Of a stretch of 23,623 nt of DNA, positions 148 through 20,113 are shown one piece after another. The notes under the pieces were generated by a model, which made no database searches, was not told the origin of the DNA, and was given only the letters and a program-made list of their open reading frames with translations. Every line of letters begins with the position of its first letter. Positions within the stretch are counted from its first letter, which is position 1. Made by a program: the position numbers and the translations under genes. The stretch covers positions 1-23,623 of IMG/VR virus record IMGVR_UViG_3300045049_000022; one strand, written 5' to 3'. Origin of the DNA: a virus.

Positions 148-1095
148 TTAATGCACTCGACGAGCGTTGATGAAGCAGGACATCGTAGCTGTGCCGCTTG
201 AAAAGCCAGCATTGCCAACGAGATAAACGGTCGTGTTGCTCGACACGTTCTGGACTTGCATAGGAGGCATCGAGCTTTGCCCAAATGTCGTGGAGCCCGG
301 ATAAACGGCCTGAGAAAGATTCGGCACAGCCGGAAGCGTCGCGCTAGTCGTGCTAAATCCGCTCGATACCACCGTAAATTGCGCGCCGCCAGATCCCGCG
401 AAGTTGACGTTACCCCATACGTTCCAGTCACCGGCGGTGAGATTCACGCTCGCGCAATTGGTCGACGTGCTATTCGTGATGCTCACCGACGATCCTGTCG
501 CGGTGAGAAGCTGACCAACCTGGCCTGCGGCAGCCGCACTGCCGTTCGTTACACCTTGGATATTCGGCGTCGTGATCGTTGGCGATGTCGCGAGAACAAC
601 CCCACCGGAGCCGGTGACAGCACTGCCGAGCGCTGCGGCAACGCCAGTTCCAAGACCCGATACGCCAGTTGAGATCGGCAACCCGGTCGCGTTCGTAAGT
701 GTCGCGGCCGAGGGAGTGCCAAGGTTGGGCGTTGTCAGAGTCGGGGATGTGGCAAGAACGATCGCCCCCGATCCTGTTACGCCTGGATTTGCACAGGTAA
801 ATCCGGTATTGGTCGTCCACTGCAACGAAGCCCCGGTAGCACTGCACCCAGGCATTGCAAATGCCGTCGGCGATGCGCTGGCGTTAGTTCCGTTTGCGAG
901 GACCGTATTAGCCGCGATCGCTGCAATTCCATTTAGACCAACGCCGCCCCATGCAGGTGCACTAGATGCACCGGTTGATACGATCGCTTGCCCGCTCGAC
1001 GAACCTGTTGGATTGAGCAATTGAACCGGGACCGTCGTCGTCGCAGATGCGATCGCCGCAAAAAGAGCGAAGAATATCGCGAAGAGTCTTTTCAT
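148..1095 (-). CDS. Fibre-repeat protein with a signal peptide
   Basis: This 315-residue protein begins 11 bases after the tailspike stop, with AAGGAT eight bases before the ATG. Residues 1-18 (MKRLFAIFFALFAAIASA) have the basic n-region, hydrophobic core and A-x-A end of a Sec signal peptide. The rest is rich in Gly, Ala, Ser and Thr, with no charged helices, as in phage tail-fibre shafts. Two copies of a repeat of the form VTGSG-x-x-VLATSPT-x-TTPN lie at residues 106-124 and 160-178. Residues 216-312 form a beta-type C-terminal domain that resembles the C-terminus of the 241-residue protein at 10001-10726 (NLTAGDWNVWG against NLSAGTWDISG, and a shared TVYLV). It is probably a fibre-like or exported surface protein. 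The signal peptide is unusual for a virion component and makes export to the periplasm or cell surface a real alternative. Confidence 0.85.
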   Translation of the reverse strand: MKRLFAIFFALFAAIASATTTVPVQLLNPTGSSSGQAIVSTGASSAPAWGGVGLNGIAAIAANTVLANGTNASASPTAFAMPGCSATGASLQWTTNTGFTCANPGVTGSGAIVLATSPTLTTPNLGTPSAATLTNATGLPISTGVSGLGTGVAAALGSAVTGSGGVVLATSPTITTPNIQGVTNGSAAAAGQVGQLLTATGSSVSITNSTSTNCASVNLTAGDWNVWGNVNFAGSGGAQFTVVSSGFSTTSATLPAVPNLSQAVYPGSTTFGQSSMPPMQVQNVSSNTTVYLVGNAGFSSGTATMSCFINARRVH

Positions 1096-3400: not shown

Positions 3401-6400
3401 TCACCTCTTGTTTTCTAGGGCTTGCTGCCCTGCCACGCTCACCAAGCCGCGCAGCCATTGTTCTCGGGCAATCGGATCGTTCGCCGCAGTCTTCGCGGCG
3501 CGCGTGAGGTCGTAAAACCTGCGGAATTTGGGAGAGTTCGCCGCCGCCTTGATCGCAGCATCCGAGGCCGTTCCGCCTTTAGCGACAGCCTGGAATTCGG
3601 GCGACACGATGAGTTCGTCGGCGGCCTTCATCACGTCTGGCTTGCCGCGCGACAGCGCACTCGCGATGGCGCGGCCGATGCCGCTACCAACCGCCGCTCC
3701 AATCGGGCCGGCTATGGCCGCGCCGGCCGACGCCGCACCGGTGCCGATGTGACCGAGCGCGGACTGCCGAGCGATGTTCATGACGTTCGACATGACGCCG
3801 TCGGCGTGCGCGTTCAATTCCTCGCGCGCAGCCATGATGCGGCCGGTCGTGATCGCCTCGCGCGTCGCATTGGAGATGCCGCGCGACACCTTCGCCAGGT
3901 CGAGCAACTGCTGGCGCGTCTCCGGGGGCAAATTACCCATGACAGCGTTGAACGCGGCCGAGTTCTTCTTCAGGCCGTCCATCCAATCGGCGTACGCCTT
4001 GAAGTTGAGCTCGCCGTTCTTTGTGGCCTTGCCGAAGGCATAGCCCAATCCGCTCGCCGTCACCTGATGGCGCATGCTGGGCGGCACGGACTTGATGAGC
4101 GCGACGAACTTCGATTCATCGCCCTTCGGCAGCGCCGAGATAGCCGTGCCGAGCTTGCCGACGATGGAGTCGCCGAGTTGCTTACCAAAGAGCGAGGTCA
4201 TGTCGTCCTCGACGCTCTTTCGCATCTGCACCGCGGCGCGCGCGGCGTCGAACTTCTCGAGCGCACCCGGAACGCTGCTGAGCGCCGCGCGCTGGTCGTC
4301 CGAGATGCGCCCATAGAGCGCCTTGAGCAAGCCGGTGTCGGCATCCTTGAACGGCCCCTGATTGCGCAATCCGTTGCCGATGTTTCGTCGCACGTCGTCG
4401 AGCAGCGCATAGCTCGGCTGCTGCATTTCGGGCGCTATTCCGAGCGCGCGCGGATCGACCTCCTGGCCGCCCACGGTCATCGGGATTTCCTTCGGTGAGA
4501 GCTTGCCGAGAATCATCTTTTCGGGTGCGGAAAGGTTCTTCGCACCGCCCAGGTCGTCGGCGCGCTGCTGGATGAACGACAGGACGTTTTGCGCCGGCGC
4601 GGCCGTCTTGGCCGGGACGGACTGCTTGATGTCGGCATAAAGCGCCTCGGCCTTCTGGTCGAGTTGCTGCTGGGTCGTCATCAACTGGCTTTTGACCTGC
4701 GAGGAAAGGTCGCTCAGGTCGCGCGTACCGCCCGCGTCCTCGATGACCTTCACGCCGCGCTGCCCGATCTGGTCTAGCCCTTCCATCTCCTGCTGGCGCG
4801 CGAGGCTACCAGGCGTCGATTTGATGGCCTGCGCGAGTTCGCGATACGCCTGATTCGTCGTCAGGTGATCCGGTTGAAGGTTGTCTTCGATGCCAAGGCG
4901 CTTGGCCGCCGCTAGCGTCTCGGCGTCGGGCGATGCCTGCGAGGCGAGGATTTCGCGCGCATTGCCCTGACCCATGCCGAACGGTGCTTGCCCGGTTGCC
5001 TTGCGCGTCTGAGCCGCGAGTTCGTCGGGCGCGATGAAGTCTTTCGCGGCGCTCGCGAGGGGCGATGCAGCAGGGTTGATTGCCGCCTCTTCGGTGGCCG
5101 CCGGCGCCGCCGCTTCTGCTTGGGTGCCAGCACTTTCGGCCGATGTTGCTGCAGCCGGGGCCTGCTCCGCTGCTGCTGTTTCAGCCGCTTGCGCCTGCCC
5201 TTCCGGCGCAGCAGCTTCGCCTCGAGCGGCTTGCGATTGCTCGGCTGTGTCTGATACGGACGCCTCGCCCGCCTGCGCGCCGCGCGCGCCGACTTCGCCG
5301 ACAAGCGCCTTCATGACACGTGCGGCCGCGATTGGGGAAAGCGCGGTCGTGAGCAGATTCGCTGCAAGCCCGAGCGCTTGGCTTCCGGTCTGCTGATGGA
5401 CCTGCTCGCCAACCGCGCCGCCGGCCGCGCCGGCAGCAACCGCCGCTGGGAGATGCGCGAGCGTCATGCCCGGGAACGGTTGGACCATGAGCCCAGCGCC
5501 GCGCGCGCCGGCCTGAACGACCTGCTCGCCCGGCGTCTGCGCGACAGGCAAGCCCATCTTGTTCGCCGCCGTCTGGGCAACTTGCTCCATCGGCGGGATC
5601 TGAGCGGCAGCGTTTGGTGCGCCAGCAAGCGGAGCGGCCGCGGCGTTCGCTGGAGATGCCATATGCGTGCCGAGCAGTGCATCAACGGCATTAAGCGGAC
5701 CCGCGCCACCGGCAATGGCGTTCAACGCATTGACGGGAGCGTCGACGATGCCCTTTGCCTTGTCGACGAGGCTACCGATGCCTTGCCCAAGCCCTTCTAG
5801 GAAGCCGCGCTCGGCGACGCCTGCCGCACGTCCGACGCCTGGCGCAGGAGGGTTGAGCGTGACGCCCGGCGGTAGCGCGATATTGCCGGCGTCCAAATCC
5901 TTCTGGAACTGGGCGGCATCCTCCGGGCTCATCTGCCCTTTGTTGAATGCGTCGATCGCTGCCTGCGGCACGATCGGCATCACCTTGGGCTGCGGCTCCT
6001 GCGGCGCGGGCTGTTTTACGGTGGACCCCGCGGGCAGCACAATGCGCCCCGAGTTCACGTCCTGCTCAAACTGCGCGGCGTCCTCGGGCGACATGCTGCC
6101 GCTCTTGTACGCCTGATAGGCTTGCTCGAGCGGAGACGGACCGGATTGCACGGCGCCCGGCGCCTGCCCGACGTTCGGCGCCGGCTGAAGCGCATACGGA
6201 TCGCTTCCGGCGGCCGGCGCGGACGATTGAGGGCCGATCGAACCCGGCGCGCTGCCCACGTCGGGCGCGGCCTGCAGCGCGAATGGATTGGGCGACTGGC
6301 CTTGCACGTAGCTCTTGGGCGTGAATCCAGTCACGCGCTTGGTATATGCCATCGTCTGCGGCCCCCAATTCTTCGGGTCTGTGCCGCCGATGTAATTCGC

Positions 6401-6727
6401 CACTGCCAGCACTGGATTGCCGCCGTTGCGATCGAGATTCTGCTTGAGCAGGTAGGCTGCGCCGTAGGCTGCCGTCTGCGGATTGAGCCACGGATCGACG
6501 CCGGTTTGATCGATGACCGCCTGTCGCGTCGTCGGCGTGATTTGGTACGGCGTTGCGGCGCTCGCGCTCGATACCTGATCGGCGTTCGATTTCTCGCCCT
6601 TCGTGCGGATCGACGACAGCAAAGCGAGCGGGATGCCGACTGCCGCCGCCGCGGACTGGTCGGCTTGATCGTAGGCCGGATCCTTGTACGAGGTCGGAAA
6701 GGCGCTCGGATCGTAGCCGGTCGGCAT
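3401..6727 (-). CDS. Ejection protein with lytic transglycosylase domain
   Basis: This very large protein (1108 residues) is probably ejected with the DNA and opens the peptidoglycan. Residues 30-140 form a lytic-transglycosylase-like domain: the putative catalytic Glu sits in RTKGEKSNADQ (residue 45), followed by a divergent SSASAATPYQITPTT motif and by VLAVANYIGG. Next come Pro/Ala-rich linkers with two copies of a 34-residue repeat containing SPEDAAQF, an Ala/Glu-rich stretch around 480-560, and a long helical C-terminal half. The C-terminal half has a Gly/Ala-rich, possibly membrane-active segment (ASAGAAIAGPIGAAVGSGIG). ATG 6727 overlaps the upstream stop as TGATG and has GGGGG seven bases before it; a GTG at 6730 is the alternative start. 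Position and layout match the last ejection gene of P22 (gene 16) and of T7 (gene 16, which also carries a transglycosylase). Confidence 0.85.
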   Translation of the reverse strand: MPTGYDPSAFPTSYKDPAYDQADQSAAAAVGIPLALLSSIRTKGEKSNADQVSSASAATPYQITPTTRQAVIDQTGVDPWLNPQTAAYGAAYLLKQNLDRNGGNPVLAVANYIGGTDPKNWGPQTMAYTKRVTGFTPKSYVQGQSPNPFALQAAPDVGSAPGSIGPQSSAPAAGSDPYALQPAPNVGQAPGAVQSGPSPLEQAYQAYKSGSMSPEDAAQFEQDVNSGRIVLPAGSTVKQPAPQEPQPKVMPIVPQAAIDAFNKGQMSPEDAAQFQKDLDAGNIALPPGVTLNPPAPGVGRAAGVAERGFLEGLGQGIGSLVDKAKGIVDAPVNALNAIAGGAGPLNAVDALLGTHMASPANAAAAPLAGAPNAAAQIPPMEQVAQTAANKMGLPVAQTPGEQVVQAGARGAGLMVQPFPGMTLAHLPAAVAAGAAGGAVGEQVHQQTGSQALGLAANLLTTALSPIAAARVMKALVGEVGARGAQAGEASVSDTAEQSQAARGEAAAPEGQAQAAETAAAEQAPAAATSAESAGTQAEAAAPAATEEAAINPAASPLASAAKDFIAPDELAAQTRKATGQAPFGMGQGNAREILASQASPDAETLAAAKRLGIEDNLQPDHLTTNQAYRELAQAIKSTPGSLARQQEMEGLDQIGQRGVKVIEDAGGTRDLSDLSSQVKSQLMTTQQQLDQKAEALYADIKQSVPAKTAAPAQNVLSFIQQRADDLGGAKNLSAPEKMILGKLSPKEIPMTVGGQEVDPRALGIAPEMQQPSYALLDDVRRNIGNGLRNQGPFKDADTGLLKALYGRISDDQRAALSSVPGALEKFDAARAAVQMRKSVEDDMTSLFGKQLGDSIVGKLGTAISALPKGDESKFVALIKSVPPSMRHQVTASGLGYAFGKATKNGELNFKAYADWMDGLKKNSAAFNAVMGNLPPETRQQLLDLAKVSRGISNATREAITTGRIMAAREELNAHADGVMSNVMNIARQSALGHIGTGAASAGAAIAGPIGAAVGSGIGRAIASALSRGKPDVMKAADELIVSPEFQAVAKGGTASDAAIKAAANSPKFRRFYDLTRAAKTAANDPIAREQWLRGLVSVAGQQALENKR

Positions 6728-8178
6728 CACTGCGCCCCCGTGTATTTATTCAGATACGAGAGGCTTCCGCCGAATTGGCCTGCTCCCTGAGCCGGTTGCG
6801 CTGGCTGATTGATCTGCACGCCGGGCGCTGCGTTCGGCGCAGCAAAAGGCGAAGGCGCGGTCGATCCTGCCTTGAGCAATTGCGTCATGAACTGCGGGAA
6901 CGTGGTGCCGCGCGCGACCTGAATCCCGCCGATATTGGCATCCTGTGTGGCCGGACCGAGTCGGCCGAACGAATACGCCCAGCTCGATTTCCCATCGGCC
7001 ATGCGCGCGGCGCGCAGCGATGCGTTTTGGAGTGATTGCAGGAACGCTTGAATCTGACCGGCATCGGCATTTTTCGGAGGCAGTCCCGCCGTCAGGTTCT
7101 TTTTGTCCTGCGCCGATAGACCGGCTCCCCCGAACGCACCAAGCGAGTTCGAAACCGACTGCACCTCGTTGCGGATCGTGTTGACCTGATCCTGATTGCC
7201 CCAAAAGTTTTGCCAGCCGGCACGGATATCCTCGGGCTTGCCCGCTGCCCATTGCCCGGACGCATCGAGCGCGCCGACGTTCTGCGCGAGCGTGCCGATG
7301 CGCTGCGCCATCTGGTCGTGCGCAACACTATCGGCCGCAGCCTGATCGGCCTGAGCGCGCAGCGTCGGGTCCATGTTCGGCGCGTTTTGCAGGTAGTTCA
7401 GCTCGCGCACCTTCAGGGCCACGTCCGTCTGGAACTTCTGCTGATCGAGGCCAAAGGTCGCCGCGCGGTTGGCAATGATCGATTGCAAGTCCTGCGACTG
7501 CGATTGCGTCAAGCCTATATTGGCGGCCGTGGCGGCCGGCGCCATATTGGCGGACTGAATCGAGGCCGGCGTCGCCTGTCCTTGCACGAAGTGCGTCGCG
7601 AAGTCCTGCGGACCCATCGAGGCCGCGAGCGTGCCCCACAAGTACGCTTGAGCGTTCTTCGTGCCATTTTGCTGGTCGGACTGGATCAGCTTTTGTGCGT
7701 CGCGAGCCGTCGCGAGCTCGGCCTGAAGTTGCTGATTGTTCTCATATCCAGGCGTGTTCTGCACGGCATCGATATGCTGCTGCACTAGGTCATTCGCTAT
7801 GTCGTAGCGGCCGTTTTGCAAGGACGCCGCGATGGGGGCGAGCTGATTGATCGTCTGCTGGCGCTGCGCGTCCGTATAGTTATTCCAAGACGATGACAGC
7901 GCCGCACTCCACTCGGGATTGGCGGTCGCCATTTGAATCGCGGCCATGGGCGTCGGATTCTTCGCGAACTGCTGCCACTGGTCCATGAAGTTTTGCTGGC
8001 GTTGCTGTGCCATGCCGAGCAGCACGTTTTGCTGTTGCGTTTGCTGAGCTTGGGCCTGCGTCAGGCCGATCGCGGCTTGGGCCTGCGACGCCTTCAAGAA
8101 GCTGTTCACCGGATCGGCCTGGATCTGCATGCCGCTGTAATTCACCGGCTGCGGAGGGGTTGCCATGATGTCGGACAT
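6727..8178 (-). CDS. Putative internal virion / DNA ejection protein
   Basis: The protein has 483 residues. The start at 8178 is preferred because GGAG lies six bases upstream and the ATG follows the previous stop by one base; the open frame extends back to 8208 without a ribosome site. The N-terminal third is extremely rich in Gln and Ala (for example LTQAQAQQTQQQNVLLGMAQ), and most of the chain looks alpha-helical with few Cys or Trp. It is the middle of three consecutive large or repetitive genes that lead to the transglycosylase gene, the place of P22 gene 20 or T7 gene 15. By that position it is probably packaged in the capsid and released into the cell envelope during infection. I see no enzymatic motif, and the assignment rests on composition and gene order. 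Confidence 0.75.
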   Translation of the reverse strand: MSDIMATPPQPVNYSGMQIQADPVNSFLKASQAQAAIGLTQAQAQQTQQQNVLLGMAQQRQQNFMDQWQQFAKNPTPMAAIQMATANPEWSAALSSSWNNYTDAQRQQTINQLAPIAASLQNGRYDIANDLVQQHIDAVQNTPGYENNQQLQAELATARDAQKLIQSDQQNGTKNAQAYLWGTLAASMGPQDFATHFVQGQATPASIQSANMAPAATAANIGLTQSQSQDLQSIIANRAATFGLDQQKFQTDVALKVRELNYLQNAPNMDPTLRAQADQAAADSVAHDQMAQRIGTLAQNVGALDASGQWAAGKPEDIRAGWQNFWGNQDQVNTIRNEVQSVSNSLGAFGGAGLSAQDKKNLTAGLPPKNADAGQIQAFLQSLQNASLRAARMADGKSSWAYSFGRLGPATQDANIGGIQVARGTTFPQFMTQLLKAGSTAPSPFAAPNAAPGVQINQPAQPAQGAGQFGGSLSYLNKYTGAQ

Positions 8179-8179
8179 A

Positions 8180-9073
8180 TCAGTCTCCGCTCGCGCCAGC
8201 GCCTGCACCCATCCCAGCGCCTACGCCAAATAGACCGGCCGGCGACATCCCGCCAGCACTCATATACGAAGGCGCTGCAGCAGATGCGGCAGGCATCGTG
8301 AAGTTGAACGCCCCTGCACCTGCTCCAGCGCCGCCCCCGAAGTACTGACCAAGTGCGCCTGTCACGCCGTTCAGGCCGTTAGTGAATGCGTTGGCTCCGG
8401 CGAGCGTAGCGCCCGCACCGATCGCGCCTTGCTGACCAAGCAAGCTTGTGATGTTGTTACCCGTCTGCATTGCTGCGTTTCCGGTGCCGGCAGCAGCGTT
8501 TTCACCGAGACCCGCGAGACCTCCCCATTGCCCGACTGCGGTATTGGCGCCATTCAATAGACCGATCTGGCCATTCAACGAAGTGTTGAGATTGCCGATT
8601 TGGGTCTGCATGACATTGGAAAGAATCTGCCCAGGCAGATAGCCAAGGTTGGCTATCATGTTTCCGCCGCGTAGGCCGCCAGTTGCACTCGCATTCGCAA
8701 GGATGGCCTGCTGCCCCAGATTCATTGAAGTCGTATAGAGCGGATTCGATTGAAGCCCGGTAATAGCGGCTTGCTGCGCTGGCGCTCCGTTTGCCCCAGT
8801 CAGATTATTCAACTGCCCTAAGACGTTCTGATAACCGCCGAGCGCTTGAGAATAGTTGCCGATTGAGTTCTGGTAGCCGGTCAATGCGCTAGTTCCAGCA
8901 TCGACATACGGCTTGAGCAGGCTGCGCACCGTATCGAACTGGTACTGCTGCTCGGCAAGCTGAGATTGCGTCGCATCGGCTTGCTTGTTCGCGGCGGAAC
9001 GCGAGGCATCCGCCGATATCATGGAGCCCGCCAAACTAGCGCCCGCGACAGCTAATGGAATAGCAGCCGGCAT
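8180..9073 (-). CDS. Putative DNA transfer (ejection) protein
   Basis: The 297-residue protein starts at ATG 9073, four bases after the stop of the GNAT-type gene, whose last codons (AAG GAG TAA) supply the ribosome site. Residues 1-21 (MPAAIPLAVAGASLAGSMIS) are hydrophobic with small-residue spacing, like a membrane-inserting or glycine-zipper helix. Residues 22-65 are polar and probably coiled coil (KQADATQSQLAEQQYQF). The remainder is Gly/Ala/Asn/Gln-rich and low in charge, with a conserved-looking LRGGNMIANLGYLPGQ section near residue 140, and a Gly/Ala-rich tail. This fits the gene 7 ejection protein position of P22-like phages and the gene 14 membrane-pore position of T7. Pore formation in the outer membrane is inference from those families and from the hydrophobic N-terminus. 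Confidence 0.75.
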   Translation of the reverse strand: MPAAIPLAVAGASLAGSMISADASRSAANKQADATQSQLAEQQYQFDTVRSLLKPYVDAGTSALTGYQNSIGNYSQALGGYQNVLGQLNNLTGANGAPAQQAAITGLQSNPLYTTSMNLGQQAILANASATGGLRGGNMIANLGYLPGQILSNVMQTQIGNLNTSLNGQIGLLNGANTAVGQWGGLAGLGENAAAGTGNAAMQTGNNITSLLGQQGAIGAGATLAGANAFTNGLNGVTGALGQYFGGGAGAGAGAFNFTMPAASAAAPSYMSAGGMSPAGLFGVGAGMGAGAGASGD

Positions 9074-9076
9074 CGA

Positions 9077-9538
9077 TTACTCCTTGCTGATCCCAAGAAG
9101 GATCTCGTCGTACAGCACGCCGCCCTTCTGGAAGCTCTTGAGGTTGCGGCCGTATTCGGCCATGCCGCACGCGCGCGCAAAGCGCTCGGCAATGCGGTTG
9201 TATTCGGGCACGTTGGTCACGATTCGCCGGCACGGGCCATGGTCGAACATCCATCGCGTGCCGAGTTGCGCCGCCTCGCGTGCGGACTTGCCCCAAGCGC
9301 GCGGCAACATGCACGTGTGGACTTGGTAGCAGGCCATCGAGAGCGGAATGAGCATGAATACGCCAAGCGTTCCAACCTCGTCTTGTGCATGCAGATAGAT
9401 CACGCTCGGATGGTCGGCCGGCTCGAACTGAGCGACCGACGGAGAACTGTCGTCGATGATGTGCGGATATACGCGCGGGTGCGTCATTACTGAGCGCACT
9501 AGCGGCATATCGGCAGTTCGGGAGATTTGGATCGGCAC
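9077..9538 (-). CDS. GNAT-fold acetyltransferase-like protein
   Basis: The protein has 153 residues. Residues 72-90 (QVHTCMLPRAWGKSAREAA) resemble GNAT motif A, with RAWGKS in the place of the acetyl-CoA pyrophosphate loop. Residues 109-128 (N-x-P-E-YNRIAERFARACGMAE) resemble motif B, with the usual Asn and the Gly-hydrophobic ending, so the fold call is good while catalysis is unproven. The start is a GTG at 9538; the next in-frame ATG is residue 11 and has no ribosome site. It is the first gene after a candidate promoter, with a hairpin almost touching its start. The following three genes are ejection proteins, as in T7, where gene 13, also thought to be GNAT-like, precedes genes 14 to 16. 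A role in assembling the ejection proteins is as likely as an enzyme role. Confidence 0.8.
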   Translation of the reverse strand: MPIQISRTADMPLVRSVMTHPRVYPHIIDDSSPSVAQFEPADHPSVIYLHAQDEVGTLGVFMLIPLSMACYQVHTCMLPRAWGKSAREAAQLGTRWMFDHGPCRRIVTNVPEYNRIAERFARACGMAEYGRNLKSFQKGGVLYDEILLGISKE

Positions 9539-9659: not shown

Positions 9660-9989
9660 TTACGACGCTATTGCGCCTGAAACGGTCAACGTTGCGCCGT
9701 TCGTGGACGCATAGATGTTCATTCCTTGCGTCAACTTGTGGTTGATCGCGTTCATGAGCGATAGCGCAGCGCCCGGCGGCACCGAGACGCGATCGATGTG
9801 CGTCGCATCCGCCGCCGATGTGCCGATGTAGAGATCGACCACGGCGGAGCCCGCAGCCGCGACAGGATTCCATGCGCTCGCGGCTGTGATCGACACCTGC
9901 GAGCCGACGGGGACCGGCCCATAGACGGAGGCGGCTGAAGCCGCATTGACGGCTTGGCAAAGTTGCGCCCAATTCAATTGAGTCGTCAT
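9660..9989 (-). CDS. Hypothetical virion-associated protein
   Basis: The protein has 109 residues and starts at ATG 9989, 11 bases after the stop of the 241-residue gene. GGAG overlapping that stop is a usable ribosome site. The N-terminus is helical (TQLNWAQLCQAVNAASAASV), then the chain becomes Ala/Ser/Val-rich and beta-like (GSAVVDLYIGTSAADATHID), ending with GATLTVSGAIAS. No Cys apart from one near the N-terminus, no membrane segment and no known motif were recognised. It lies between tail-assembly and ejection genes and closes that block, since a 121-base noncoding gap with a promoter-like sequence follows. A small structural role is likely by position only. Confidence 0.7.
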   Translation of the reverse strand: MTTQLNWAQLCQAVNAASAASVYGPVPVGSQVSITAASAWNPVAAAGSAVVDLYIGTSAADATHIDRVSVPPGAALSLMNAINHKLTQGMNIYASTNGATLTVSGAIAS

Positions 9990-10000
9990 CGCATTGGCTC

Positions 10001-10726
10001 CTAGGCCAGCGCCGGACGCGCTTTGATATAGCCGTCGGCGGTCATAGTCGAAGTGTTGAAGATCGCTTGCGCGACGAGATAGACTGTTCCGGCATTAGCG
10101 AGCGTAACGCGCGTGAGCGGCGCATCGAGGTTGAACGCTGCAGTCCCGCTCAATGCTTCCGGCAACTGCTGATACGTGTCAGGCGTTCCCAGCGTGGCGG
10201 AAACGGTCGCCACTCCTGCCGTGATCTGCTCGATGACCGTGCTCGCCGCCGAGTTGAAGACGACGGTGCCGGAGATGTCCCATGTGCCAGCAGACAGGTT
10301 GATGCTGGTCGCATTGGCTGTGACTCCGTTTGTGAGCGATGTGCCGGTCGTCGATGCCTCCGAAAAGCCGACGAGCGCTTGTTTCGCCTGGTAGTTCCCC
10401 GGCGGCTGAGCTACGCGCCCGATGCTATCGAGCAGCGCGAACATAGCGAGATCATTGCGGGATCGAGGTGCGACGAGCGTATCGAAGGCCATACGAGCGA
10501 TCGAATTTCCGTCGATGGAGTTCGTGGCAGGAACCTGCCCGTTGACCTGAACGAGCAGGAATTGGAACGCCTCGGCTCCCGATGAGCCATTAATCGCATC
10601 GGGAAGGTTGACGGTAATGTCGCGCGCCATCGATTCGAGAAAGCGCACGGCCGCCTGATTCTGGCCGAATACCTCGGCGAGCATCTTTCGGTCGGGCTTG
10701 GGCGTTGCAATCGTGATCGTCGTCAT
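10001..10726 (-). CDS. Putative structural protein with fibre-like C-terminal domain
   Basis: The 241-residue protein overlaps the end of the gp10-like gene by four bases (ATGA), which implies translational coupling. Residues 1-120 are mixed helical (MLAEVFGQNQAAVRFLESMA), with a possible capsid-binding or assembly role. Residues 138-236 form a beta domain (SINLSAGTWDISGTVVF ... TVYLVAQAIFNTSTMTADGY) closely resembling the C-terminal domain of the signal-peptide protein at 148-1095. In P22 the tail needle gene 26 sits directly after gene 10, so position makes this a candidate for a plug or needle replacement. However, it lacks the long trimeric coiled coil expected of a needle. I therefore call it a structural protein of unknown place in the virion. 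Confidence 0.75.
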   Translation of the reverse strand: MTTITIATPKPDRKMLAEVFGQNQAAVRFLESMARDITVNLPDAINGSSGAEAFQFLLVQVNGQVPATNSIDGNSIARMAFDTLVAPRSRNDLAMFALLDSIGRVAQPPGNYQAKQALVGFSEASTTGTSLTNGVTANATSINLSAGTWDISGTVVFNSAASTVIEQITAGVATVSATLGTPDTYQQLPEALSGTAAFNLDAPLTRVTLANAGTVYLVAQAIFNTSTMTADGYIKARPALA

Positions 10727-12183
10727 ACCATCATCGGCTCGCCTTCAGCCTCCAGTGCCGCGAACGAAACCGGCGCCGCATTGAAGCCGGCAAACCGATA
10801 GCCGCGGAAGTTGCGGAAGAAGTGGCGCGGGCGCCACTGTGCGCGCTCATTGCGCCGGCCCTGCGCTCCCATACTGATGAACTTCGGCGCGCTCCACATG
10901 AGACCGTCATTCGTGTATTGCATCGACATCGTGTCGACTTCGCCAAGCGCCGCGCGGCCGTAGGTGCCAATGAGTTCGACGGCGTTCACGGCAAAGCCCT
11001 TAGCCTTGTTGTAGGCAAAGATCGTGTCGAACTGCCACCGCGCATTGACGCCATACTGCTGCGCGGTCGTGTCATCGAGGAAACCCATGCGCTGGTCGTA
11101 CTTGTCGCCGAAGATGAATTTTCCGTAGCAGTAGACCGCATGCCACGCGCGCCACGGACCCGACCCGTCCGTGCTCGAATCGCGGAAGAACCAAAGCGGC
11201 TGCTGAGCGGATTGCGAGCCCATCACGTCGTAGACGAGCGTGTAATCGGGCAGGTGCATGCAGATGAACTGCTGGTCCTTGGTCCCCCAGTATTCAAGCG
11301 TCGTCCAGTAAAGCTGCTGGTCGGTGTATTGCCTCAAAAGCATCTGAACTTCGCGCGTTGCGATGTCCTGTGCGATGCCTAGGCCCACCGACAGCCATAC
11401 GCTGGGAGACTCGCCACGCTGCCCCCCAATGAACGCGAAACCTTGGCTCGTCAGGCACTTCGCACGCGGGCCGATGACGCCCTTTTGAATCGTCGCGCCC
11501 TGGTTCTCGGTGAAAGGGAAGCCCGTTCCGCCAGTATTTTCGAAGACGGGAACCTGATATCGATTGCCAAGGTAGAGCTCGTTGCGAAACTTCCAAATTC
11601 CGTTGATCGGATCTGGCTGATTGCTGCTCGAGCCGAAAAGCTGGGTGTTGAACGTGAACTGATTGGCCAGTTGCGTCACATAGACGCTCACGCCGTCGGT
11701 GAGCACGAAATAGCCGGCCATCCAGATCAGATCGATGGGCTGACCGACGTTCGGGTCCGTGCACTTCTGCAACGTCGGGAAAGGCTGAGTAGTTCCATCG
11801 GGCTTCTGGATGGTGTAAAACCACAGCGTTCCACCGGAGACGATGCCGATACCCTGATTGGAGTAGCCGTAGTCCATCGCAACGGGATTGCCGTCGTCAG
11901 GAACTTGCCCAATGACTGTCACCACGCCCGCCGAGCTCACCGACACGAAGTTCGTCCCGATCACGCGGTAGCACACGCCCTGCCAGTTGATTCCGCCGCG
12001 ATCGATACCGGTCAGGGTGGGCGCGTTCACGTCGAAGCGCGTCAACCCCTCTGCCGAGCGCAGAAGGATGTTCTTCTCGGAGATCCCCGTCTCCTTCACG
12101 ACCGGGATCATGTTGCGCGGATACGAGGTGCGGAACTCCGCGCCCGCATCCGTATATGACCCGCGCGTGAGCGGAATCTGCAT
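10723..12183 (-). CDS. Packaged DNA stabilisation protein, P22 gp10-like
   Basis: At 486 residues this is close to P22 gp10 (about 470), a hub protein that binds the gp4 ring under the portal, helps keep packaged DNA inside and receives tailspikes. Matching features are a repeated beta-propeller-like pattern of aromatic-rich strands, the segment PSVWLSVGLGIAQDIATREV followed by RQYTDQQLYW (P22 has PSVYIIGSG and IRSYT at the same place), and the later ICMHLPDYTLVYDVMGSQ (P22 IIHLPRHVLVYD). The start at 12183 overlaps the previous stop as TGATG, and the end overlaps the next gene as ATGA. The gene is preceded by the gp4-like gene, as in P22, with two small genes inserted between them. Confidence 0.9.
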   Translation of the reverse strand: MQIPLTRGSYTDAGAEFRTSYPRNMIPVVKETGISEKNILLRSAEGLTRFDVNAPTLTGIDRGGINWQGVCYRVIGTNFVSVSSAGVVTVIGQVPDDGNPVAMDYGYSNQGIGIVSGGTLWFYTIQKPDGTTQPFPTLQKCTDPNVGQPIDLIWMAGYFVLTDGVSVYVTQLANQFTFNTQLFGSSSNQPDPINGIWKFRNELYLGNRYQVPVFENTGGTGFPFTENQGATIQKGVIGPRAKCLTSQGFAFIGGQRGESPSVWLSVGLGIAQDIATREVQMLLRQYTDQQLYWTTLEYWGTKDQQFICMHLPDYTLVYDVMGSQSAQQPLWFFRDSSTDGSGPWRAWHAVYCYGKFIFGDKYDQRMGFLDDTTAQQYGVNARWQFDTIFAYNKAKGFAVNAVELIGTYGRAALGEVDTMSMQYTNDGLMWSAPKFISMGAQGRRNERAQWRPRHFFRNFRGYRFAGFNAAPVSFAALEAEGEPMMV

Positions 12184-13154: not shown

Positions 13155-13661
13155 TTAGGTTGTGCCGCCCTCGATGGTCCACGGATCTCCCGTCGGCTCG
13201 AGCAGATCGTCGTAGCGCGTTGTGACGCGATCGGTCGGCGCAAAGAACTGCTGGTTCTTGACGTTGCGGCGATTTCCGAGGCCGATCGGCATGTGCCGCG
13301 GCATCTGCATCTTCGGGATCGTGTACGTGCCGACGAGCAGCGCGTCCAAGCCGCGCCGCGCCGCTAGTCGAGTGTCGGGGTGAACCTGCTTGCCGATTGT
13401 GGGAGCCAAGCGCAGTGCGAAGAGCGGGATTACGGCGTCTTCTGCCCAGTCGGGAATGCCGCTGTCGTCGTTCGCATTGGCTTGGCTCGCGCTGGAGGCC
13501 GCGTTGTAGCCGAGGCGAATGCCGCGCCCGTCGAGCATCAGCATGAAGCGCTCGAGCCGGCGCACGCCGGTTTGAACCTCTTCCGGCTGTATATCGAAGA
13601 CGTACCCGGCCAGGCCGATCTCCTCGTAGGCCGCGTTGACGAGATCGCCCTTGGTGGTCAT
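13155..13661 (-). CDS. Tail accessory factor (head closure), P22 gp4-like
   Basis: The 168-residue protein has the length of P22 gp4 (166), which forms a ring below the portal after packaging and begins tail assembly. The N-terminus TTKGDLVNAAYEEIGLAG corresponds to the P22 start (TKGDLVRAALRKLGVAS). It is followed by the helix EVQTGVRRLERFMLMLDGRG (P22 DAVDDLEAMMAEW), GIRLGYNAAS, an Asp-rich loop, PDWAEDAVIPLFALRLAPTI and a helix leading to KMQMPRHMPIGLGN (P22 APYPSRMPTGSGN). It overlaps the upstream gene by four bases (ATGA) and lies upstream of the gp10-like gene, as expected for partners in the neck. Some gp4 proteins have muralytic activity; nothing here shows that. Confidence 0.88.
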   Translation of the reverse strand: MTTKGDLVNAAYEEIGLAGYVFDIQPEEVQTGVRRLERFMLMLDGRGIRLGYNAASSASQANANDDSGIPDWAEDAVIPLFALRLAPTIGKQVHPDTRLAARRGLDALLVGTYTIPKMQMPRHMPIGLGNRRNVKNQQFFAPTDRVTTRYDDLLEPTGDPWTIEGGTT

Positions 13662-17902: not shown

Positions 17903-20113
17903 CTATGCTTGCGCAACTTGTGCGGCGCTTGATGCGCCTGTACTGGCATTTCCTGCCGCCTGTGCATCCTCGCCCGTCTGGGCGATGAGGGTCTGCAGCA
18001 GTTCATGGGCGAAACGCAGTCGGTCGAGGTCGTGTCCGGCAAGTTCGGCAATCGCTTTGGCCCGGCTGTCGGCTGCGTTGGCCAGCGTCTTGATCGTGTT
18101 GGCGCGCTTCTCTTCGATCTCGACCTGCGATTTCGCCGCCTCGGCCGTTATGCGCTGCGTCTCGGCCATGAGCAGTTGATCCTGCGGGCTCGGCGGCTGT
18201 TTGGCGGCCGCTGCCGCCTGCTCTTGCAGTTCCTTGGCCTCTTTCTGGGTCGGCTTGAGCACGCCCATTTGCACCAGTCGCATGCGCAGGAACTCCTGCA
18301 GGTCGTCCAGGCCCTCTCCGTCCATGTTCGTGAGGATCATCGACGTGATGATGTTGGCGAGCTGCGGGTCTTGAACGAACTGGAGCATGCCGACGAGCGC
18401 GCGCACAGTCGCATCACGCCGGCTACGGAACGCAGGGCCGACATCGACGGTGACTTCGAACTTGCCCTTGCTCGGGTCGTTGACGACTCGGGACACGCCG
18501 TCGACAAGTTTGGGCGTCTTCAGTCGGCCGCTGCCGCGCTTTCCGTCCTTGCCGACGGTCTGCATCAGCCGGCCGTCCTCGTCGTAAATCTCGCGGGCCA
18601 TGCCAAGCCAAATTTCGGCGCTTCGGCGCACCGACTTCGCCATGTTGTCCATGTAGATGAAGGCCATCATGTCGATCTGGTTTTGCACCATCTCGACGGC
18701 CTGCGCGGAAACGTTGGACACCATCTTCTCGCCCGCTTCCTGTTCGCCGAGCAACTGCTGAATATCGGCGTTCGTCATCTCGATCATCGCGGCGAGAGCC
18801 GGCGGCACGTTCGGCGGTTGGGTGAGCGTAAGCGGTAGCGGTGTCGGCGGCGCGGAGCCATCGCCCGGATCGAAGGCGTTGCGCAGCAGGTACGGGTTGT
18901 CGTCGATGTTGTCGTTCGCCCATGTCATTTCGTGGCCGCGGATCTCTTCGGGCGTGAAAACGGGCTTCGCACGCGGCGAGAGCGCAGAGATGATCGCGAG
19001 CAATGACACCTGCATGTTGAGCAGGCGCTGCGAGTCCTTTCCGTTGCGGATGTGGCCTTGAATGCGCTCTTGGTTGTCGATCCAAGCGCGCTTGCCATAG
19101 AACGGCACGATCGGAATGTTCGGGCCGGCGATATAGCCGCAATCCTCGAGCACCCGAGCGCCGTCGTGAATCCACTTGCGCACGCGCTTTTTCGTGACCG
19201 TGCGCGTGCGGATGTGCGTATAGCCCTGTGCTTTGAGGTCGTCGCGATCCTCATCCGTCAGATCGTCGTCATCGATCTTCAGGTCGCGCGTCTTGTCGTT
19301 CTCGCCGAGCGGCCTGAATACATGAACCTTCTTGCTGACCTTCTCAACCTTGTAGTACTCGACGATGTAGATCACATCCGGCGTGTACCAGTCGAACTCG
19401 GTCATTGTGACGAGCCGGCCGAGACCCATTGTCTGAGCGCTTGACGTGTACTTCGCGGCCAGGTTGTAGGGGTCGTTCGGGCTGTCGCCGTATTTCTCTT
19501 GGAACTCCGCTCGGCCCATTGCCGTGAGCACCCAGCAGTGCTGCGCGTCGCTCTTGTCGTATTTCTTGCCGCCCAGATCCCAGAATACGAATCGATCGGC
19601 GTCGTAAATCGGCTCGAGCGAGATCTTTTGCTTCTCGTCTTCCTCGTCCTCGTCGTCTTCGTAGGTGTTCGTGAGACGCCACGCACCGAAGCCGCCGGCT
19701 ACGCCCTCTTCGAAGGCGTTGTCCATGGCTTCCTGTCCGCCATGCGCCTCGTCGGCGCGGTACAGGTCGTTCAGGAAGTTGGCCGTGTGCTCATCAGCCT
19801 CGTCATCCTTCGGGCGGAAATCGACCGAGACTCGATTGTTCCGGTACTCGCTGAAGATGCGTATGCAGGCGAGGTGCAGCTTGTTGATCTCGAACCGCGG
19901 CTTGTTGTCGAACTGCAGGCGCAGCGCGTCTTCCCACTGCGCGCCATCGACAAAGACGAAGCGCCTATCCTGCAGGCACTTCATGCGGATTTCGTACTGA
20001 CTCTTTTGAGCCATATCGAAGCGGCGCAGCGAATCCTCGACTAGCTCGTCCTCAACGAGATCCAGCCTCGCGCCCATTCCTTCACGTTCTTCAGCCATTT
20101 TGTGCGAGTCCAT
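17903..20113 (-). CDS. Portal protein, P22 gp1-like
   Basis: At 736 residues it matches the P22 portal (725), the dodecameric ring at one capsid vertex through which DNA is packaged and ejected. Seen in order: a charged helical N-terminus (LVEDELVEDSLRRFDMAQKS), the core with QWEDALRLQFDNKPRFEINK and RIFSEYRNNRVSVDFRPKDD, the crown and stem region with NDNIDDNPYLLRNAFDPGD and LLGEQEAGEKMVSNVSAQAV, and a long Ala/Gln-rich helical C-terminus (residues 620-715) like the P22 barrel. The start is uncertain: the first ATG at 20113 is preceded directly by an in-frame TAA and by a GC hairpin without a ribosome site. ATG codons at residues 6 (20098) and 13 are alternatives. Its neighbours are the terminase before it and the scaffold after it. 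Confidence 0.92.
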   Translation of the reverse strand: MDSHKMAEEREGMGARLDLVEDELVEDSLRRFDMAQKSQYEIRMKCLQDRRFVFVDGAQWEDALRLQFDNKPRFEINKLHLACIRIFSEYRNNRVSVDFRPKDDEADEHTANFLNDLYRADEAHGGQEAMDNAFEEGVAGGFGAWRLTNTYEDDEDEEDEKQKISLEPIYDADRFVFWDLGGKKYDKSDAQHCWVLTAMGRAEFQEKYGDSPNDPYNLAAKYTSSAQTMGLGRLVTMTEFDWYTPDVIYIVEYYKVEKVSKKVHVFRPLGENDKTRDLKIDDDDLTDEDRDDLKAQGYTHIRTRTVTKKRVRKWIHDGARVLEDCGYIAGPNIPIVPFYGKRAWIDNQERIQGHIRNGKDSQRLLNMQVSLLAIISALSPRAKPVFTPEEIRGHEMTWANDNIDDNPYLLRNAFDPGDGSAPPTPLPLTLTQPPNVPPALAAMIEMTNADIQQLLGEQEAGEKMVSNVSAQAVEMVQNQIDMMAFIYMDNMAKSVRRSAEIWLGMAREIYDEDGRLMQTVGKDGKRGSGRLKTPKLVDGVSRVVNDPSKGKFEVTVDVGPAFRSRRDATVRALVGMLQFVQDPQLANIITSMILTNMDGEGLDDLQEFLRMRLVQMGVLKPTQKEAKELQEQAAAAAKQPPSPQDQLLMAETQRITAEAAKSQVEIEEKRANTIKTLANAADSRAKAIAELAGHDLDRLRFAHELLQTLIAQTGEDAQAAGNASTGASSAAQVAQA

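What the first reader, a model, noticed from the sequence alone, without database searches (positions are those of the whole stretch)
3401..9538. T7-like ejection cassette on a P22-like head: GNAT protein plus three ejection genes
The sequence shows a GNAT-fold protein followed without gaps by a 297-residue protein with a hydrophobic N-terminus, a 483-residue Gln-rich protein and a 1108-residue protein with an N-terminal transglycosylase domain. T7 has the same order (genes 13, 14, 15, 16), with the transglycosylase in the last, and T7 gene 13 is thought to be GNAT-like and needed for assembly. Head, portal and neck genes here are instead P22-type. This suggests that the GNAT protein is an assembly factor for ejection proteins conserved across podophage lineages, possibly occupying the slot of P22 gene 14. 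The link between families is inference.
Basis: partly seen in the sequence, partly recalled or inferred. Interest (0 to 1): 0.55.

Follow-up and report, generated by a model that had tools for sequence, protein, structure and literature searches.

The report
P22-type ejection cassette with GNAT-fold gp14
This stretch of a phage genome is the standard P22-style set of genes for making the proteins injected with the DNA; its first gene, an acetyltransferase-like protein that has probably lost its enzyme function, is a relative of P22 gene 14, and similarly folded proteins sit in the same place in T7 and epsilon15, which hints at a shared helper for building the injection machine.

Summary
The four genes are real and at the stated coordinates. 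The cassette is P22-type, not T7-type: the order matches P22 14-7-20-16. The 153-aa protein is a distant P22 gp14 homologue (phrog_651, 1.4e-13; profile-profile prob 87-95), the 297-aa protein matches the P22 gp7 family (phrog_598, 1.9e-28), and the last protein's C-terminal half matches an SLT-bearing gp16-slot protein of a Lederbergvirus, P22's own genus (32% over 488 columns). Only the N-terminal SLT domain recalls T7. It is weak, and the catalytic-Glu column holds Gly. The 153-aa protein has a GNAT fold (pLDDT 95.5, Z 17). In its family the acetyl-CoA loop motif is lost (0 of 22) and a His is invariant (33 of 33). T7 gp13 also models as a GNAT (Z 12); it is linked by profile to epsilon15 gp13 but not to P22 gp14. 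So GNAT-fold proteins directly precede the first ejection gene in P22, T7 and epsilon15 lineages. SP6 and phiKMV lack one, and in P22-type phages gp14 is firm in 6 of 21 portal-seeded records, probable in 7 more. Best reading: a non-catalytic GNAT-fold assembly chaperone for ejection proteins; the function is inferred. The T7/SIO1 part is already in print.

The parts
9077..9538 (-). GNAT-fold protein, 153 aa; P22 gp14-type (phrog_651)
8180..9073 (-). first ejection protein, 297 aa, Ala/Gly-rich; P22 gp7 family (phrog_598)
   Evidence: phrog_598 1.9e-28; no pairwise BLAST similarity to P22 gp7 itself
6727..8178 (-). second ejection protein, 483 aa, Gln-rich; P22 gp20 slot, assigned by position only
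   Evidence: 15.1% Gln; P22 gp20 profile only E 0.008, prob 4.8
3401..6730 (-). third ejection protein, 1109 aa; gp16 slot, SLT-bearing type
   Evidence: phrog_6704 1.9e-187; 32% identity over 488 columns to the gp16-slot protein of Lederbergvirus APC_JM3.2
6329..6673 (-). N-terminal SLT (lytic transglycosylase) domain of the third ejection protein, degenerate at the catalytic Glu column
3509..4933 (-). C-terminal region shared with the SLT-bearing gp16-slot protein of APC_JM3.2
   Evidence: residues 600-1074
10723..12183 (-). P22 gp10-type head completion protein (PF11134)
   Evidence: 1.7e-24
13155..13661 (-). P22 gp4-type tail accessory factor (PF11650)
   Evidence: 2.1e-19
17903..20113 (-). 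P22-type portal (PF16510)
   Evidence: 4.3e-162
9660..10726 (-). two small genes (241 aa fibre-like, 109 aa unknown) in the place of P22 gene 26 (tail needle)

Best explanation
The cassette is a P22-type ejection module (14-7-20-16). SHOWN: its first gene encodes a GNAT-fold homologue of P22 gp14, tightly coupled to the first ejection gene; the family has lost the acetyl-CoA P-loop motif and keeps an invariant His on strand 4. INFERRED: gp14 is no longer an acetyltransferase. It acts late in infection as an assembly chaperone that binds the small hydrophobic, Ala/Gly-rich first ejection protein (gp7 type) as it is made, keeps it soluble and delivers it to the portal/scaffold inside the growing procapsid, and is not itself a main virion part. 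T7 gp13 and epsilon15 gp13 would do the same job for the T7 gp14-type protein.
For: Homology to gp14: phrog_651 1.4e-13; hhalign prob 86.7-94.6, E 4e-6 to 7e-8; bridge through H6/1 gp15 (PF11039 35.5 bits; tblastn 3e-10 from the window). Fold: pLDDT 95.5, Z 17.1 to SpeG. Motif loss: [QR]xxGx[GA] in 0 of 22 family members at the loop, 0 of 34 P22 gp14s and 0 of 56 epsilon15 gp13s anywhere in the protein, 4 of 19 T7 gp13s at the loop. Invariant His and Gly in 33 of 33. Coupling: gp7 homologue follows in 23 of 26 relatives, with 2 of the 3 misses cut off by the contig end. Cross-lineage slot: T7 gp13 model is a GNAT and gp14 follows in 29 of 29 loci; epsilon15 gp13 directly precedes gp14 in 77 of 80; P-SSP7 orf032 is phrog_308. 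In Pseudomonas phage G11 the acetyltransferase between gp12 and gp14 is not among the virion proteins named in the passage I saw (PMC10142737). P22 ejection proteins enter at the procapsid stage and need scaffold (PMC4992974 passage).
Against: No binding or knock-out data for the window; function is by synteny. A lost sequence motif does not prove loss of CoA binding. SP6 and phiKMV and about a third of the 21 P22-type records (6 with a fibre-like protein in the slot, 1 with no gene in it) make ejection proteins without a recognisable gp14, so the function is dispensable or replaceable. P22 gp14 is annotated 'virion stability factor', not ejection chaperone.
Confidence: 0.5

Rival explanations
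1. gp14 is an active N-terminal or lysine acetyltransferase that modifies an ejection or head protein during assembly (a RimI/RimJ-like enzyme dedicated to the phage).
For: Best structural neighbours are real acetyltransferases, SpeG and RimI; residues on strands 4 and 5 that line the GNAT cleft (His73, Pro78, Pro110) are invariant in 22 of 22.
Against: The CoA pyrophosphate loop is one residue short and lacks the GxG/A in the profile alignment to solved GNATs; strict motif in 0 of 22.
Confidence: 0.2
2. gp14 is a head or neck stability/completion protein (as the P22 annotation says); its place before gp7 only reflects operon order.
For: P22 record: 'virion stability factor'; phrog_651 'head morphogenesis'; neighbours upstream are head-completion genes 4, 10, 26.
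Against: Does not explain why GNAT-fold proteins precede the first ejection gene also in T7 and epsilon15 types, whose necks differ.
Confidence: 0.23
3. The cassette is truly T7-derived and was swapped onto a P22-type head.
For: Similar order; SLT domain in the last protein matches phrog_342 at 3e-11 and the T7 gp16 profile at E 4e-4.
Against: No match of proteins 1-3 to any T7 ejection family; P22 has the same order; SLT also in other P22-type gp16-slot proteins, including a Lederbergvirus.
Confidence: 0.03
4. The GNAT protein is a host-takeover enzyme (like the RNA polymerase-targeting Rac of phiKMV-like phages) that merely sits in the late operon.
For: Phage GNATs of that kind exist (PMC8515928 passage).
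Against: Late morphogenesis position, coupling to gp7 in 23 of 26 relatives, family named head morphogenesis.
Confidence: 0.04

Closest known systems
Salmonella phage P22 gene 14-7-20-16 module (BK000583)
   Same: Gene order, slot of the GNAT protein, homologous gp14 and gp7 families, P22-type portal, gp4, gp10
   Different: gp14 only 17% identical in alignment; last protein carries an SLT domain and a different C-terminus from P22 gp16; gp20 not detectably homologous (E 0.008)
gp16-slot protein of Lederbergvirus APC_JM3.2 (MG197996)
   Same: N-terminal SLT domain and a homologous C-terminal region (32% over 488 columns)
   Different: Carries a P22 gp16 module (84% identical, 125 residues) to which the window shows no match; intact KES motif where the window has KGE
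T7 gene 13-14-15-16 (V01146)
   Same: GNAT-fold protein first, then three ejection proteins, transglycosylase domain in the last
   Different: No sequence relation of proteins 1-3; T7 gp13 is phrog_308/PF11090
epsilon15 gp13-gp14-gp15-gp16-gp17 (AY150271)
   Same: Annotated GNAT acetyltransferase directly before the first ejection protein
   Different: phrog_308 type, related to T7 gp13 (hhalign prob 94); lytic transglycosylase annotated in the next protein, gp15
Pseudoalteromonas phage H6/1 gp15 and Pseudomonas phage PAE2 orf12
   Same: Closest named homologues of the GNAT protein (28% and 34%), same slot
   Different: H6/1 has an extra 172-aa gene between gp14 and gp7; its gp16-slot protein gave no SLT hit

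Membership tests
P22 gp14 family (phrog_651 / PF11039 DUF2824) | Match to the phrog_651 profile | tested here: met
   1.4e-13, residues 3-153 of 153
P22 gp14 family (phrog_651 / PF11039 DUF2824) | Pfam PF11039 at its gathering score | tested here: not met
   19.0 bits against 25; so filed as a distant homologue, not as a DUF2824 member by Pfam's threshold. Relative H6/1 passes with 35.5
P22 gp14 family (phrog_651 / PF11039 DUF2824) | Position directly before the gp7-type ejection gene | tested here: met
   3-nt gap in the window; gp7 homologue follows in 23 of 26 relatives
P22 gp14 family (phrog_651 / PF11039 DUF2824) | Needed for infectious or stable virions | not testable with these tools
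   P22 annotation only
T7 gp13 family (phrog_308 / PF11090) | Sequence or profile similarity | tested here: not met
   hhalign prob below 1 for the window family; no phrog_308 hit at E up to 1
T7 gp13 family (phrog_308 / PF11090) | GNAT fold and slot before the first ejection protein | tested here: met
   both models are GNAT; slot shared
GNAT acetyltransferases (enzyme) | GNAT fold | tested here: met
   Z 17.1, rmsd 2.5, 150 residues
GNAT acetyltransferases (enzyme) | Acetyl-CoA loop motif [QR]xxGx[GA] (motif recalled) | tested here: not met
   0 of 22; one residue short in the profile alignment. Some solved GNATs also depart from the first position of the strict motif
GNAT acetyltransferases (enzyme) | Acetyl transfer | not testable with these tools
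   -
P22-type ejection cassette | Order 14-7-20-16 downstream of gp4 and gp10 | tested here: met
   gp20 by position only
T7-type ejection cassette | Homologues of T7 gp14 and gp15 | tested here: not met
   no match
Active lytic transglycosylase | Catalytic Glu in the ES motif | tested here: inconclusive
   Gly in that column with Glu one residue on; Pfam 21.2 against 21.3

The most novel reading that the evidence does not exclude
A GNAT fold stripped of its CoA site is the common assembly factor of the ejection apparatus across P22-, T7- and epsilon15-type podophages, either one ancient gene diverged past sequence recognition or the same fold recruited more than once; P22 gp14, a gene without a clear molecular role, would be its P22 form, and uncharacterised slot proteins such as phrog_17333 would be further diverged forms.
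Probability: 0.4. Interest if true: 0.6.

Novelty: new member of a known kind. Interest (0 to 1): 0.38.

Why it matters
The window itself is an ordinary, if divergent, P22-type module. The wider pattern matters more. If GNAT-fold proteins without a CoA site serve ejection-protein assembly in three podophage lineages, two poorly understood genes (P22 14 and T7 13) get one testable role, and a cheap genetic test in P22 or T7 could settle it. The survey also shows transglycosylase domains on the last ejection protein in several P22-type phages, contrary to a statement in a review (PMC8954989 passage).

Tried and rejected
T7 origin of the cassette: rejected. Sequence link between P22 gp14 and T7 gp13: tried with five groupings, with A3 against A4, and with the epsilon15 and P-SSP7 proteins added; none reached prob 5. 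One comparison (H6/1 plus P22 types against T7) gave E 0.0094 over 47 columns, which I do not count. Direct BLAST of the window 297-aa protein to P22 gp7: nothing; that assignment rests on phrog_598, an Ala/Gly-rich family, although phrog_598 marked a gp7 in 21 of 21 records. Relatives in bacterial genomes: none confirmed. gp20: no significant homologue outside the closest relatives.

Gene-14-slot proteins of other P22-type phages (12 proteins, 1000 shuffles each): no shuffle reached the score of Skarpretter, C130_2, Aeromonas 4_4512 or MW202520, but 4, 15 and 39 shuffles did for Lumpael, sortsyn and Vibrio 199E37; Vib41E34.2, BA3, VvAW1, X14 and AH02 show nothing (681-818). A profile of six of these proteins finds one PDB chain at E up to 10, a GNAT, E 0.96: suggestive only. 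Of the 6 slots called fibre-like, 4 (Vib41E34.2, BA3, VvAW1, P26218) rest on PHROG hits; X14 and MW202557 were not scanned and rest on like size and position. C130_2 and Lumpael were not scanned by PHROG; they were aligned with the phrog_17333 members (67% and 49% identity to Skarpretter). The 33-sequence gp14 alignment used 6 of the 34 distinct P22-like sequences.

Rows dropped before counts: L001, L002, L004, L005 and L006 (own locus or shorter duplicates); identical sequences collapsed.

Literature: no paper held the terms gp14, P22, ejection proteins and acetyltransferase together; the term DUF2824 is in 2 papers, seen as listing only; searches gave no statement of P22 gp14 as GNAT in their listings. 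I did not search beyond this open-access library; of 12 papers opened I saw passages only. The T7/SIO1 parallel is in print (PMC6775973, passage). Roles of T7 gp13 and P22 gp14 mutants in subscription papers are recalled only vaguely and not used.
Full report
WHAT IS THERE. The window is a 23.6-kb linear viral contig. Its late genes run on the minus strand in P22 order: small and large terminase, P22 portal (PF16510, 4e-162), scaffold, coat, gp4 (PF11650), gp10 (PF11134), then the reported cassette, then a tailspike with a P22 head-binding domain (PF09008). Composition agrees with the description: hydrophobic N-terminus of the 297-aa protein, 15% Gln in the 483-aa protein.

THE CASSETTE IS P22-TYPE. 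P22 has genes 14 (151 aa), 7 (229), 20 (471), 16 (609) in this order. The window's 153-aa protein matches phrog_651, the P22 gp14 family, at 1.4e-13, better than any acetyltransferase family. Profile-profile comparison with P22 gp14 gives probability 86.7 (window type alone) and 94.6 (with the H6/1 type added), E 4e-6 and 7e-8. It fails Pfam's own DUF2824 cut-off (19.0 against 25), so it is a distant homologue; the H6/1 protein bridges (35.5 bits; tblastn 3e-10 from the window). The 297-aa protein matches phrog_598, the P22 gp7 family, at 1.9e-28, although BLAST sees nothing against P22 gp7. The 483-aa protein can only be called gp20 by position. The last protein's C-terminal half is 32% identical over 488 columns to the gp16-slot protein of APC_JM3.2, a Lederbergvirus, which in turn carries a 125-residue P22 gp16 module at 84%. 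None of the first three proteins matches a T7 family.

THE SLT DOMAIN. It is the one T7-like trait, and it is not peculiar to T7: an SLT domain heads the gp16-slot protein in 6 of the 21 phage records of the P22 type whose regions I fetched (sortsyn, Lumpael, Skarpretter, APC_JM3.2, C130_2, PAE2), as well as in the window and its two nearest relatives (some fetched regions may stop short of the gene, so 6 is a lower bound). A review states that it is absent from P22-like phages (PMC8954989, passage seen). In the window the catalytic Glu column holds Gly, with a Glu one residue on (KGEKS for KESS), and the Pfam score is just under the cut-off, so activity is uncertain.

THE GNAT PROTEIN. The AF2 model from 22 family sequences has pLDDT 95.5. 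Solved GNATs align at Z up to 17.1 (SpeG, rmsd 2.5, 150 residues), and all 26 PDB sequences found by the family profile at E up to 1 are named as acetyltransferases. In BFVD the top named relatives include a DUF2824 protein (1.5e-8). In the alignment to solved GNATs the acetyl-CoA loop is one residue short and lacks the second Gly. The strict motif occurs in 0 of 22 family members. A Gly and a His are invariant in 33 of 33 P22-type gp14 proteins aligned. I read this as a GNAT fold that has lost its cofactor site and kept a binding cleft; that is inference.

HOW FAR THE ASSOCIATION REACHES. Among 26 viral contigs found through the GNAT protein, a gp7 homologue follows in 23; two of the misses end in the contig and one (L031) has a 407-aa gene without detectable similarity. 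In H6/1 one extra gene intervenes. To avoid that seeding bias I took 18 diverse records found by the window's portal (one search lists 60 of 233) plus H6/1, PAE2 and P22. All 21 carry a gp7 (phrog_598), but only 6 carry a firm gp14 (phrog_651 alone finds 5). In 7 more the gene just before gp7 is a 123-133-aa protein with weak gp14 likeness: six of or near phrog_17333, with the invariant His in register, and MW202520, whose alignment does not reach the His. In 6 it is a fibre-like protein (4 by PHROG, 2 by size and position), in AH02 unassigned, and in MW202475 there is no small gene. So gp14 is common but not universal in P22-type phages.

OTHER LINEAGES. T7 gp13 models with pLDDT 94.0 and is a GNAT (Z 12.1). 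T7 gp14 follows it in 29 of 29 loci. Epsilon15 gp13 is annotated as a GNAT acetyltransferase just before the T7 gp14-like ejection protein; phrog_308 joins it with T7 gp13 and P-SSP7 orf032, and the T7-epsilon15 link is also seen by hhalign (prob 94). Seeding on the epsilon15 ejection protein, the GNAT gene lies directly upstream in 77 of 80 loci (aligned ends 3-8 nt apart), 2 are cut off and 1 lacks it. SP6 and phiKMV have no gene in the slot. There is no sequence link between the T7/epsilon15 and P22 forms, so shared descent and repeated recruitment remain open.

WHAT IS IN PRINT. [quoted passage not shown] YA3 and G11 list an acetyltransferase before the internal virion proteins (PMC7326022, PMC10142737, passages). 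I found no statement that P22 gp14 is a GNAT or belongs to this pattern (listings of an open-access library).

HOW IT PROBABLY WORKS. Tight coupling to the hydrophobic first ejection protein, late timing, loss of the cofactor site and recurrence of the fold in the same slot point to a non-catalytic assembly chaperone for the first ejection protein. P22 ejection proteins enter at the procapsid stage with scaffold's help (PMC4992974, passage), which is where such a chaperone would hand over. The identity steps are shown; the function is inferred at about even odds, with an active dedicated acetyltransferase and a plain head-stability factor as the main rivals.

VERDICT.

Noticed in passing
L253:5105-7840, L252, L251, L250, L254, L008:11776-14373, window 6329-6673: SLT transglycosylase domains head the gp16-slot protein in 6 of 21 P22-type phage records examined, including one Lederbergvirus, contrary to a review's statement that P22-like phages lack it.
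   Followed up: partly
L250:2688-3089, L252:5999-6394, L262:2712-3089: phrog_17333, ~130 aa, unknown function, sits in the gene 14 slot of Murrayvirus-, Skarprettervirus-type and an Aeromonas phage and may be a far-diverged gp14.
   Followed up: partly
L259:6354-6905, L260:6202-6696, L257:2474-3034, L263:6358-7233: In a group of marine and freshwater P22-type phages a fibre-like protein (phrog_12032/24280/34170) takes the slot before gp7.
   Followed up: no
L005:8941-11031: The 696-aa gp16-slot protein of this relative has weak hits to four GNAT Pfam families around residues 484-539 (E 0.02-0.05).
   Followed up: no
window 148-1095, 10001-10726: Two proteins of the window (one with a fibre-family hit) end in a similar motif (TVYLV...), suggesting a shared C-terminal domain; the 241-aa one lies where P22 has its tail needle gene 26.
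   Followed up: no
L007:9464-9982, L034, L035: H6/1 has an extra 172-aa gene between gp14 and gp7; the loci L034 and L035 show a gap of about 500 nt there.
   Followed up: no
L146:17922-18535: SP6 lacks the GNAT in the ejection slot but its record lists two short 'acetyl-CoA acetyltransferase' genes after the terminase.
   Followed up: no
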